Part shown: positions 493-27,922 of the stretch, one piece after another
Layout: each line of letters starts with the position of its first letter
Position numbering within the stretch: position 1 is the first letter of the stretch
Assembly (NCBI RefSeq): GCF_917563915.1
Contig: NZ_CAKJTI010000020.1
Location: 1 to 62,990, forward strand
DNA: 62,990 bases
From: Bacillus rhizoplanae
GTDB taxonomy: Bacteria > Bacillota > Bacilli > Bacillales > Bacillaceae_G
Direction of reading: 5' to 3'
The notes under the pieces: model-generated
What the model was told of the DNA's origin: nothing
Seen by the model: only the letters and a program-made list of their open reading frames with translations
The model's database searches: none
Made by a program: the position numbers and the translations under genes

Positions 493-810
493 CTATTCAT
501 TATTTTTTACGTACACGATGTCCTTCACAAATATATGATAGAAATTTTCATCTTTACATTGCATCGTAAAAATAGGTGATTCTTCATCGAAATACGCAAT
601 CGTACCTTTAACTTTTTGAATAGAATTTTGAAGTTTAGCTGCTACAAGTACTGTTTGTTCTTGTTCATATGCTGTTCTTAGTTGTTGAATGATCTCCTTC
701 ATTCGCTTTCGCTTTTCAGGAAACATAATCATCCCAACAAATTTCCTTCCTTTCTCATCTTTCCAAAAATAATCCCAATGCGGAAGTATTCCTTGCTTAA
801 ACTCTCCCAT
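493..810 (-). CDS. YolD-like small protein
   Basis: A 105-residue protein with a strong AAGGAGGGG ribosome site 7-8 bases before the ATG. The C-terminal half has the alternating pattern KGTIAYFDEESPIFTM followed by FVKDIVYV, which resembles YolD-like proteins (a small beta-rich domain often paired with Y-family DNA polymerase genes). No UvrX/DinB polymerase gene is adjacent, so the family call rests only on pattern. It could equally be an unrelated small cytoplasmic protein. Confidence 0.45.
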   Translation of the reverse strand: MGEFKQGILPHWDYFWKDEKGRKFVGMIMFPEKRKRMKEIIQQLRTAYEQEQTVLVAAKLQNSIQKVKGTIAYFDEESPIFTMQCKDENFYHIFVKDIVYVKNNE

Positions 811-958
811 ATAAGCTCCCCTCCTTATCTTTATCTCACCCTTTTTGGCAGTTATCGCATACCTATCTTCTTTAGGTAGACAATAACTTTCAAAAAAAGA
901 ATTTACTTGTTTTAATTAGCAAACAAATACATTAGCGTTTAAGTAGCAGGTAATTGAC

Positions 959-5744: not shown

Positions 5745-5750
5745 CTCTCC

Positions 5751-5783
5751 TTAGTTTTTTATAGAGGGAGTTCGCGAACCTCT
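5751..5783 (-). promoter_or_regulatory. preQ1-I riboswitch aptamer
   Basis: The minus strand reads AGAGGTTCG...CCCTCT followed by ATAAAAAACTAAG. The P1 stem AGAGG/CCTCT and the A-rich tail with ACTAA match the class I preQ1 aptamer known from the B. subtilis queC leader. It precedes queCDEF, which make preQ1, so feedback repression is expected. Confidence 0.93.
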
Positions 5784-5825
5784 CCCATGCTATACATGGA
5801 CTGTCTTCTTCAATTTGCATCTTTT

Positions 5826-15576: not shown

Positions 15577-15666
15577 TCTTTTACTCACCTCTTCCCCTTC
15601 TTTCCTCTAACCAACTTTTTTTCTGTTGGTAAATTATATGACAATCTAGGGAAAATGTGTCCTTTT

Positions 15667-15823
15667 TTTATCCCGCATTAACGGGCAGTAAGATCCCCAC
15701 CTCAAGGTTGAGAGAGTAGCGAAGAAGATAGACGGGGGATAACTGCCCGTAAAAGTCCGATTGGTTCAACTAACCATCAGTGGGGGATGAAGAAAACCCT
15801 CACTGATGGAAGTTTCACTTTAT
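15667..15823 (-). repeat. full-length bcr1-like element (157 bp)
   Basis: TTTAT at both ends. It runs TTTATCCCGCATTAACGGGC, CCCCACCTCAAGGTTGAGAG, CGGGGGATAACTGCCCGT, TTGGTTCAACTAACCATCAG and GATGGAAGTTTCACTTTAT. All three internal hairpin blocks are present, so this is a reference copy for the window. Confidence 0.85.
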
Positions 15824-15892
15824 GCAAATTCAACATCTTGCGAATGTTGTTTTTTTCCATATATATGCCTATACTAAACTCAACAATGTAAT

Positions 15893-16280
15893 TCTAAAGT
15901 CAACTACCCACCACTGAAACGCTAACGTGTTTTGATGTGGGGGCTTGCAAAAAGCTCTGGTTGTCTAGCCTCAGTCTTTTATAGACTCCGTTTGTAGGTT
16001 GCATACCCAAGAATGATTCCCTAGTTCTTGGCTCTATGGTGGCTCTGTAACAATTCTGATTGGGAAGGAACGGTCAACCACAAGCCTTCTTGTATAAGAA
16101 GTTGCCAACACCTACAAACATTGGCGAAGGGAAACTACATCCTTATTAGGATGGGCAAAACACGCGTGTATTTGCCATGACTTGCTTTAGGCTGTGCCTA
16201 ACCAAAATTCATCCCCATCTTATCGCTAGGCTATTGTCCGTCACGCGTACGAAGATGGGGATGAATTTCGGAAATACGTT
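15893..16280 (-). mobile_element. non-autonomous IS200/IS605-type element with structured RNA-like body
   Basis: A ~390-bp block without an open frame and with higher GC than its surroundings. Read on the minus strand it starts with a 15-bp perfect stem (ATTCATCCCCATCTT with its complement, 16207-16264) and ends with an imperfect hairpin CCCCCACATCAAAAC...CAGTGGTGGG followed by TAGTTGAC, the kind of subterminal palindrome seen at ends of IS605/tnpB elements. Between them lie at least five more hairpins and a long-range stem GTTTGTAGGT/ACCTACAAAC (15989-16119). It resembles a tnpB-less derivative whose right end could give an omega-RNA. The right-hand limit is close to the ribosome site of the next gene. 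Confidence 0.55.
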
Positions 16281-16298
16281 AAAGTTGAGGGAAAAAAT

Positions 16299-18047
16299 AT
16301 GAACGTTGTTATTAGTACGTTAAACGCAAAGTACATTCATACAAATCTAGCAATTCGTTATATTAAAGCATATGCCCAGCCTGAATTTGATTTAGAAATG
16401 GCTGAATATACGATTAACGATCCTGTCATGAATATTGTTACTGATTTGCATAGGCGCAAACCTGATGTAATAGGATTTAGCTGTTATATTTGGAACATCG
16501 AAGAAACAATTGAAGTCATTCAAATGCTCAAGAAGATTAATCCAAACCTTATCATTTTTGTCGGTGGTCCAGAAGTTACATATGATGTGAAATATTGGCT
16601 AAAACGTGTTCCTGAAATCGATTTTATTATTATTGGTGAAGGAGAAATTGCTGTAAAAAATCTTCTATTTGAAATACAAGGTGCACAGCAATTTGAAAAT
16701 CTTGACGGTATCGGATTTATAAAAGCTGATGGTACCCATGTAATAAAACCGCAACGTGAGAAACTAAACTTAAAAGAATTACCATCCCCATATCGTTTTC
16801 CGGAAGATATTCCACATTTAAGTAAACGTATTACCTATATTGAGACAAGTCGCGGTTGTCCGTTTAGTTGTCAATTTTGTTTATCTTCTATTGAAGTTGG
16901 CGTTCGTTACTTTGATCGCGAACGTATTAAAGAGGATATTCGCTACTTAATGAAGAATGGTGCACGTATTATTAAATTCGTCGATCGTACTTTTAACATT
17001 AGCCGTAGCTATGCTATGGAGATGTTTCAATTTTTAATTGATGAACATGTACCTGGAACCGTATTTCAATTTGAAATTACAGCCGATATTATGAGGCCTG
17101 AGGTCATTGAATTTTTAAATACACATGCCCCTGCTGGTTTGTTCCGGTTTGAAATTGGTGTACAATCTACAAACGACCAAACAAACGACCTCGTAAAAAG
17201 ACGTCAAAACTTCGAAAAATTGACGAGAACAGTTACAATGGTTCGTGATGGACAAAAAATCGCACAACATTTAGACTTGATTGCCGGATTGCCTGAAGAA
17301 GACTATCAATCCTTCAGAAAAACATTTAATGATGTCTTTGCTTTAAGACCAGAAGAATTACAACTTGGCTTTTTAAAACTGCTGCGTGGTACGGGCCTTC
17401 GAATTCGGGCAAATGATCATCAATATATATACATGGATCATGCACCATATGAAATGCTCGGAAATAATGTACTATCCTTTGATGATATTCTTCAAATTAA
17501 ACAAGTTGAAGATGTATTAGAAAAATATTGGAATGCTCATCGTATGGATCATACCGTGCCATATGTCATATCTCATACATTTGATACACCTTTTGATTTC
17601 TTCCAAGAGTTTGGAACTTATTGGGATACACAAGGATGGAGCCGAATTGGACACCAACTAGAAGATTTATTCCAACGTCTGTATCAATTTTTACAATCAA
17701 GAAAAACTGCACAACTTTATACGATTAAAGCCTTATTGACAATTGATTATTTACAAAATCATAAATATCGTCCTCGTAAATCATGGATAACGGAACAAAG
17801 GAAAAAGGGAGAAGTAGATTCCTACTATAAAATGATTATGGAACGACCTAACATACTAGGAGACGCATTTGCTGCACTTCAATTGACAGAAAAAGATTTG
17901 TATAAACACACAATTGTAGAGCATATACCATTTGACTACCACCATTACATGAAACATGGTGAAATGATTTCAAAACCTTCCATCCTTGTTGCTTACTACA
18001 ATCCAAAAACAACACAATGTCGATTATACGCAACAAATATAAGCTGA
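16299..18047 (+). CDS. B12-binding radical SAM protein (DUF4080 C-terminus)
   Basis: A 582-residue protein with an N-terminal cobalamin-binding domain (residues about 1-135, with VIGFSCYIWNIEE and IIFVGGPEVTYD), a radical-SAM domain with the cluster motif RGCPFSCQFC (Cys-x3-Cys-x2-Cys near residue 188), and a ~180-residue C-terminal region typical of DUF4080 proteins. The substrate is unknown. GAGGG lies about eight bases before the ATG. Its upstream region is taken up by the IS605-type element, so its promoter may lie within it. Confidence 0.88.
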   Translation: MNVVISTLNAKYIHTNLAIRYIKAYAQPEFDLEMAEYTINDPVMNIVTDLHRRKPDVIGFSCYIWNIEETIEVIQMLKKINPNLIIFVGGPEVTYDVKYWLKRVPEIDFIIIGEGEIAVKNLLFEIQGAQQFENLDGIGFIKADGTHVIKPQREKLNLKELPSPYRFPEDIPHLSKRITYIETSRGCPFSCQFCLSSIEVGVRYFDRERIKEDIRYLMKNGARIIKFVDRTFNISRSYAMEMFQFLIDEHVPGTVFQFEITADIMRPEVIEFLNTHAPAGLFRFEIGVQSTNDQTNDLVKRRQNFEKLTRTVTMVRDGQKIAQHLDLIAGLPEEDYQSFRKTFNDVFALRPEELQLGFLKLLRGTGLRIRANDHQYIYMDHAPYEMLGNNVLSFDDILQIKQVEDVLEKYWNAHRMDHTVPYVISHTFDTPFDFFQEFGTYWDTQGWSRIGHQLEDLFQRLYQFLQSRKTAQLYTIKALLTIDYLQNHKYRPRKSWITEQRKKGEVDSYYKMIMERPNILGDAFAALQLTEKDLYKHTIVEHIPFDYHHYMKHGEMISKPSILVAYYNPKTTQCRLYATNIS

Positions 18048-27590: not shown

Positions 27591-27667
27591 CGTTAAATAT
27601 CTGAGCAAAAATTTTTAAAATGGTTGACAAACATTAACAGTTCCCATATATTATAAATAACAGCATA

Positions 27668-27765
27668 TTTCCAAAGGGGAGTAGCGTCAGAGAAATTATT
27701 CTCTGAAACAAAGTCGTCATTACGTGGAACTATGTTCCTCCGGCTTTGTTGGCATATTTTATTAC
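27668..27765 (+). promoter_or_regulatory. yybP-ykoY manganese riboswitch
   Basis: Contains AAAGGGGAGTAGCGTC, the GTCGTCATTACG loop and CCGGCTTTGTTGGC, the conserved pieces of the yybP-ykoY aptamer that binds Mn2+. It is followed by a terminator hairpin and then a TerC-family exporter gene, so Mn2+ should prevent termination and turn on export. Confidence 0.95.
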
Positions 27766-27774
27766 ATATGTCTA

Positions 27775-27811
27775 GCAAGACCTTTGCCTATCAACGGCAG
27801 AGGTCTTTTTT
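27775..27811 (+). terminator. expression-platform terminator of the Mn2+ riboswitch
   Basis: AGACCTTTGCC...GGCAGAGGTCT stem followed by six T between the aptamer and the terC gene. Confidence 0.85.
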
Positions 27812-27922
27812 GTGTTCGTTTTGAAATTTCTCTGCCATTGGTAGAGCTTATTTTGGGGAAGCTAAACAATGGGGAATTTTCTTCTTTTGTTTAGCACCTA
27901 TACAAACGAGAGGAGAATGTAA

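What the first reader, a model, noticed from the sequence alone, without database searches (positions are those of the whole stretch)
15893..16280. Hairpin-rich 390-bp element: tnpB-less IS605 derivative or new structured RNA
The block has no open frame but contains a 15-bp perfect end stem (16207-16264), a long-range stem GTTTGTAGGT/ACCTACAAAC enclosing ~110 nt, the hairpins CCAAGAA/TTCTTGG, CTTCTT/AAGAAG, GGGCAAAA...TTTGCC and TAGGC/GCCTA, and an end hairpin followed by TAGTTGAC. IS605/tnpB elements have such subterminal palindromes, and their right ends give omega-RNAs. Here no protein is left, yet the RNA-like structure is well preserved, as if an RNA guide outlived its nuclease and could use a TnpB encoded elsewhere. 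The putative guide would be the ~20 bases next to TAGTTGAC (about 15873-15893, minus strand). It also abuts the ribosome site of the radical-SAM gene and may affect its expression.
Basis: partly seen in the sequence, partly recalled or inferred. Interest (0 to 1): 0.75.

Follow-up and report, generated by a model that had tools for sequence, protein, structure and literature searches.

The report
Orphan guide RNA of IscB nuclease
A 380-base mobile DNA element without the gene for the RNA-guided nuclease IscB still carries the complete guide-RNA part, inserted between the predicted promoter and the start of a host gene; orphan guide RNAs of this kind are already known, so it is a well-documented new example rather than a new system.

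Summary
The block is real. It is an IS200/IS605-type element (15899-16277) that carries a full-length IscB omega-RNA (Rfam HEARO, 100.8 bits, E 1.4e-19, + strand) and no iscB. One end is shared with iscB and tnpB elements of related Bacillales; the other, followed by GTTAAA, with iscB and tnpA/tnpB elements. The residue between omega-RNA and that end resembles the iscB start region, so this reads as an iscB-deletion derivative. Six of six aligned orthologous leaders lack it: it sits between a -10 box (TATACT, shared by four of the six) and the ribosome site of a B12/radical-SAM gene. The predicted transcription start lies about 16 nt before the omega-RNA, so the host promoter would make guide plus scaffold. 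RNA helices covary. A second protein-less element of the same build occurs in another genome; the closest omega-RNA found (87%, Bacillus methanolicus PB1) belongs to an iscB element split by an IS110 insertion. Standalone IscB omega-RNAs are already reported. Whether this one has a partner IscB is untested: the host genome is not held.

The parts
15847..15875 (+). Predicted sigma-A promoter of the radical-SAM gene, TTGTTT-N17-TATACT (-35 15847-15852, -10 15870-15875)
   Evidence: TTG-N20-TATACT block present in 4 of 6 aligned orthologous upstream regions (L141, L143, L144, L145; L144 and L145 nearly identical there). The generic scan did not flag it; its -35 matches the consensus at 3 of 6.
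15883..15898 (+). Putative 16-nt guide: flanking DNA immediately 5' of the scaffold; predicted transcription start about 15881-15884
   Evidence: Follows from the HEARO start and the -10 box; 16-17 nt suffice as guide in OgeuIscB (PMC9640706, passages). Inferred, no transcript data.
15899..16138 (+). HEARO / IscB omega-RNA scaffold, model positions 1-211
   Evidence: Rfam RF02033, 100.8 bits, gathering 83; covariation
15899..15950 (-). Transposon end with hairpin (right end in the transposase orientation), shared by iscB and tnpB elements
16086..16101 (+). Extra hairpin CTTCTT-GTAT-AAGAAG, inserted relative to the Rfam consensus; B. methanolicus PB1 and, by eye, G300 have a hairpin with other letters there
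16139..16184 (+). Apparent residue of the iscB translation-start region (two hairpins) fused to the other transposon end
   Evidence: By eye, against L205, L206, L209, L222
16185..16277 (-). Other transposon end (left end in the transposase orientation): small hairpin plus large palindrome 16202-16271
   Evidence: Shared with L098, L101, L103, L104, L205, L206, L261, L266
16278..16283 (+). GTTAAA, target motif / predicted TAM (TTTAAC in the transposase orientation)
   Evidence: TTTAAC in 9 of 9 aligned ends; two truncated ends without it (L123, L161) were not aligned. Contains TTAAA, fitting the NTAAA TAM of NovaIscB (PMC13180657, passage).
16299..18047 (+). B12-binding / radical-SAM gene (DUF4080) whose leader the element has entered

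Best explanation
It is a protein-less IS200/IS605-family element that arose by loss of iscB from an omega-RNA--iscB element and inserted at a TTTAAC site between promoter and ribosome site of a radical-SAM gene. Mechanism: a Y1 transposase supplied in trans moved it. The host gene's promoter transcribes about 16 nt of flanking DNA as guide, then the omega-RNA, then the gene. If an IscB is present in trans, it loads this leader RNA and cuts the empty allele (guide followed by TTAAA), so that repair from an element-bearing copy restores the element. Supported by sequence: identity of RNA and ends, empty sites, promoter-RNA-gene order. Inferred: transcription, loading, cutting, retention. Confidence in identity and origin about 0.95; that it is still used as a trans guide about 0.3.
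For: Full-length HEARO match. Relatives with iscB directly behind the omega-RNA: Anoxybacillus plasmid, G003, G403. B. methanolicus PB1: 87% identical omega-RNA, uninterrupted IscB frame (377 bits, cut-off 175), same other end and GTTAAA, iscB split off by an IS110-family insertion. Both end types and the target occur, by eye, in a tnpA+tnpB element of G403. Second protein-less copy L205: HEARO 105.3 bits, both ends, GTTAAA; its orthologous site in G403 lacks it. Six of six aligned orthologous leaders lack the window's element. Against PB1, of the pairs formed in the window, 5 changed compensatorily, 3 on one side kept, 1 broken, against 0.40/2.2/11.1 expected at random. IscB guide 16-17 nt (PMC9640706).
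Against: None of five query proteins (IscB, TnpA, TnpB of relatives) has a significant match in the 63-kb window (best E 0.25), and the host genome is not held. G404, which holds L205, has no IscB above the family cut-off (best 53.5 of 175 bits; such weak matches also occur in 9 of 14 control genomes), so protein-less copies can persist without a partner. The window copy shows some decay: pair 16053-16071 is broken only in the window (14 of 15 keep it), the transposon-end hairpin has two window-only mismatches (by eye), and one search counts 2 pairs broken in the window but formed in PB1. Covariation could predate loss of iscB, since PB1 has iscB; 3 of the 5 compensatory pairs lie in the extra hairpin, and without it the counts are 2, 2 and 1. 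No transcript data.
Confidence: 0.8

Rival explanations
1. Inert relic: same identity and origin, but the omega-RNA has no remaining function and is decaying (MITE-like).
For: Window-only broken pairs; no IscB over the cut-off in G404 although it holds a similar element; other iscB-less copies exist in other HEARO lineages (L090, L094, L095).
Against: Scaffold still scores 100.8 bits; most changes against PB1 keep pairing.
Confidence: 0.5
2. Co-opted leader: the omega-RNA now acts as a structured 5' leader that tunes the radical-SAM gene, with or without IscB binding.
For: Element lies between -10 box and RBS, sense orientation; the consensus scan found no + strand terminator in 15600-16400; L205 lies likewise about 28 nt upstream of a MoxR-type gene.
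Against: Only two such placements; target motif and the need for an outside promoter could explain them; no clear promoter was seen upstream of L205; no expression data.
Confidence: 0.12
3. TnpB omega-RNA on the minus strand.
For: The terminal ~50 nt are shared with tnpB elements.
Against: BLAST similarity to those elements goes no further; the minus strand folds no better than shuffles; the + strand is HEARO.
Confidence: 0.03
4. A B. cereus repeat (bcr) family member.
Against: Relatives lie in B. methanolicus, Anoxybacillus and other genomes, whereas bcr repeats are said to be specific to that group (PMC6542083, passages).
Confidence: 0.03

Closest known systems
HEARO RNA (Rfam RF02033) = omega-RNA of IscB
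   Same: Full-length model match, 5' guide position, most helices
   Different: No iscB behind it; extra hairpin at 16086-16101; 3 of 5 Rfam pseudoknot pairs formed
Standalone omega-RNAs that function with IscB (stated in a passage of PMC9581776, citing its reference 4, which I take from recall to be Altae-Tran et al. 2021)
   Same: omega-RNA without an adjacent iscB
   Different: Here a partner is unknown, both transposon ends are recognisable, and the RNA lies in the leader of a host gene; no activity shown
Non-autonomous IS200/IS605 elements (MITE / PATE; names from recall)
   Same: Both transposon ends and TTTAAC target, no protein
   Different: Keeps a complete nuclease guide RNA inside
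TnpB omega-RNA of IS200/IS605
   Same: Shares the transposon-end hairpin
   Different: Similarity ends after about 50 nt; strand and guide side opposite

Membership tests
HEARO / IscB omega-RNA (RF02033) | Covariance-model score above the gathering cut-off over the full model | tested here: met
   100.8 against 83 bits, model 1-211
HEARO / IscB omega-RNA (RF02033) | Covarying helices | tested here: met
   27 of 60 pairs with changes on both sides, shuffled mean 17.5, 0 of 500 as high; further pair types 55 against 50.0, 18 of 500 as high
HEARO / IscB omega-RNA (RF02033) | Pseudoknot of the Rfam model | tested here: inconclusive
   3 of 5 pairs formed in the window; that helix 76% of cells paired in the alignment
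IscB OMEGA system | iscB directly downstream | tested here: not met
   No IscB match in 1.5 kb downstream, none significant in the window
IscB OMEGA system | Guide in the flank 5' of the scaffold and TAM at the other end | tested here: inconclusive
   Geometry fits and GTTAAA is present; activity not tested
Standalone trans-acting omega-RNA | Active with an IscB encoded elsewhere | not testable with these tools
   Host genome not held; activity needs an experiment
IS200/IS605 non-autonomous element | Both ends shared with a transposase-bearing element | tested here: met
   tnpA+tnpB element in G403 (L266) has both end types and TTTAAC; one end aligned, the other compared by eye
IS200/IS605 non-autonomous element | Empty orthologous site | tested here: met
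   6 of 6 aligned relatives lack it at the radical-SAM leader, but these are at most 78% identical in the protein; within-species polymorphism not tested
TnpB omega-RNA | Core scaffold beyond the transposon-end hairpin | tested here: not met
   BLAST similarity to copies beside tnpB stops by query position 58
bcr repeats of the B. cereus group | Match to a bcr consensus | not tested
   Consensus sequences not available

The most novel reading that the evidence does not exclude
iscB-less omega-RNA elements are selected in Bacillales as solo guides placed under host promoters: the insertion makes a host gene's own leader into an omega-RNA with a 16-nt guide, so that one IscB elsewhere polices many insertion sites and at the same time binds the leaders of host genes, coupling element retention to host gene expression.
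Probability: 0.1. Interest if true: 0.7.

Novelty: new member of a known kind. Interest (0 to 1): 0.42.

Why it matters
It shows, with recognisable ends, empty sites and iscB-bearing relatives, how an IscB element can turn into a protein-less guide-RNA element, and gives a concrete case (host promoter, predicted 16-nt guide, shared target motif, a close B. methanolicus IscB) around which trans use of an orphan omega-RNA can be tested.

Tried and rejected
TnpB omega-RNA on the minus strand: rejected. B. methanolicus PB1 copy as a second standalone omega-RNA: first believed (notes), then withdrawn when an uninterrupted iscB frame was found about 1.8 kb downstream behind an IS110-family insertion. 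An exact 41-base stretch of the element in viral contigs: none. Element in phages: no match. PB1 IscB in viral contigs: none by its six peptide patterns. IscB on B. cereus-group plasmids: none among the 60 of 74 matching records that were listed (14 not seen). Plasmid matches to the whole element: 1 record; to the right part: 2 weak ones. Loose promoter pattern in the 80 orthologues: 12 of 80 match, of which only L002 has TATACT.

How common: HEARO matches at E <= 0.001 in 2 of 19 genomes and 10 of 397; DNA matches to the element in 3 of 19, 10 of 193, 10 of 397 and 3 of 50; these sets overlap. Only a few candidates per genome were scored (5, 2, 3), so numbers are lower bounds. In the HEARO searches 0 of 14 control genomes rang.

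Census of HEARO copies: 55 examined, the window included, some of them below the Rfam gathering score. 34 had 900 nt or more downstream: 25 with iscB (250 or more residues; L180 and L194 share one iscB), 2 partial, 7 without (window, L205, L090, L094, L095, L184, L185; L184 is the PB1 copy with displaced iscB). 13 had an iscB start and less than 900 nt downstream (in L089 the similarity stops after 17 residues, with 499 nt held); 8 had no match and no room. Left out before counting: L097, L210, L215, L222 (truncated or at contig ends) and duplicates from a second search.

Full report
Identity. The Rfam scan of the whole window gave three hits, one of them HEARO (RF02033) at 15899-16138 on the + strand, 100.8 bits against a gathering score of 83, E 1.4e-19, model positions 1-211 (alignment). 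HEARO is the omega-RNA of the RNA-guided nuclease IscB; passages of PMC9755519 state that 65% of the 5' untranslated regions of these nucleases hit RF02033 and that the 5' region is the reprogrammable spacer.

Ends. The HEARO copies printed with iscB begin GTCAA; a G004 lineage with other starts does not. Copies beside tnpB genes carry the same hairpin in reverse at their end. The other end (palindrome plus GTTAAA) occurs in G002, G003, G403, G404 and B. methanolicus PB1. TTTAAC stands just outside the end in 9 of 9 aligned copies; two truncated ends, L123 and L161, lack it and were not aligned. One copy, L266 in G403, is a tnpA+tnpB element with both end types, the hairpin end compared by eye. 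The block thus has the ends of an IS200/IS605 transposon, with the omega-RNA lying against the end at 15899.

Loss of iscB. In several iscB-bearing copies the scaffold is followed by a GGAGG ribosome site and a hairpin around the iscB start. In the window two hairpins in the same place are followed at once by the other transposon end (16139-16185), by eye. The same build is seen in L205 (G404), which matches query 6-391 at 70% and scores 105.3 bits as HEARO. The nearest omega-RNA found, 87% identical over query 4-246, is in G065, which one search identifies with the locus of B. methanolicus PB1. There an IscB frame without stops (453 codons from stop to stop, 422 from its first methionine, 421 searched: 377 bits against a cut-off of 175) lies about 1.8 kb downstream, behind an IS110-family transposase gene. 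The iscB of L206 in G403 lies in two frames.

Insertion. The six orthologous leaders aligned, from G001-G005 and G019, lack the window's element (150 nt upstream). Four of them share a TTG-N20-TATACT block with the window, though two of these four are nearly identical to each other; G001 and G019 do not share it. Four of six share the ribosome site as GTTGAGG or GTCGAGG. The element lies between the two, its first base at 15899, the -10 box ending at 15875. With a start 6-9 bases after the -10 box, the transcript would carry about 15-18 nt before the scaffold. Passages of PMC9640706 say that about 16-17 nt serve as IscB guide; passages of PMC9755519 give 24 nt as best for another enzyme of the family. 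The flank on the other side contains TTAAA, which fits the NTAAA TAM of NovaIscB (PMC13180657, passage); OgeuIscB prefers NNRR. For L205 the orthologous site in G403 also lacks an element, with an 84% identical left flank.

Structure. In 15 aligned omega-RNAs, 27 of 60 pairs have changes on both sides (shuffled mean 17.5, 0 of 500 shuffles as high; slid partners 6-11), and 83.5% of cells are paired. The number of further pair types is less striking (55 against 50.0; 18 of 500 shuffles as high). One helix (columns 183-188 with 299-304) is paired in only 43% of cells, and the extra hairpin has letters in only two or three sequences. Against PB1, of the pairs formed in the window, 5 changed compensatorily, 3 on one side and 1 was broken; random placement of 16 random substitutions gave means of 0.40, 2.2 and 11.1, and none of 20,000 draws reached 5. 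Without the extra hairpin the counts are 2, 2 and 1. One search, which also counts pairs not formed in the window, finds 2 pairs broken in the window and formed in PB1. Because PB1 has iscB, this does not show selection after iscB was lost. Signs of decay in the window copy: the pair 16053-16071 and, by eye, two positions of the transposon-end hairpin deviate only here.

Function. The anatomy allows a trans-acting guide RNA, and a passage of PMC9581776 cites standalone omega-RNAs that function with IscB. The partner could not be looked for, because the host genome is not held. In G404 no IscB passes the cut-off, while Y1 transposases do occur there (5 matches). I therefore hold the identity at about 0.95, continued use as a trans guide at about 0.3, and an inert relic at about 0.5.

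Novelty. Literature searches for HEARO with IscB, HEARO RNA, IscB with standalone, HEARO with Bacillus, and IscB with MITE and related terms (titles and starts of abstracts seen; 25 of 66 listed and 30 of 452) listed no paper that I recognised as describing an iscB-less HEARO element in the B. cereus group. The primary papers on IscB omega-RNA and HEARO are not held, so this is no proof of absence. One paper on Limnospira sets aside its introns and HEARO RNAs as remnants (PMC8400943, passage). The kind is known; this is a new member.

Noticed in passing
window 925-958 (minus strand, perhaps to about 840): A decayed copy of the same transposon end (79% over 34 nt, E 0.003) lies upstream of a small open frame (493-810, minus strand); possibly a second, older relic, possibly chance.
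   Followed up: partly
L261 (B. methanolicus PB1, G065:C3): An IS110-family insertion has separated an omega-RNA from its uninterrupted iscB by about 1.8 kb, a natural case of an omega-RNA and IscB that may no longer share a transcript.
   Followed up: partly
L090 (G004:C13): A HEARO of another lineage (108.8 bits) is followed directly by a tnpA piece that seems to lack its start, with no iscB.
   Followed up: no
L101:1560-2051 (G002): A Y1 transposase reading frame fused to the C-terminal TNB domain of TnpB, perhaps by internal deletion of a tnpA-tnpB element.
   Followed up: no
L205 / L268 (G404:C7): The second protein-less HEARO element lies about 28 nt upstream of a MoxR-type ATPase gene, in sense orientation, like the window's beside its gene.
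   Followed up: partly
window 5745-5788 (minus) and 27664-27836 (plus): PreQ1 riboswitch and manganese (yybP-ykoY) riboswitch, ordinary Rfam matches.
   Followed up: no
window 15678-15753 and 15774-15809: Two further inverted repeats left of the element (12-nt and 13-nt arms), not part of it.
   Followed up: no
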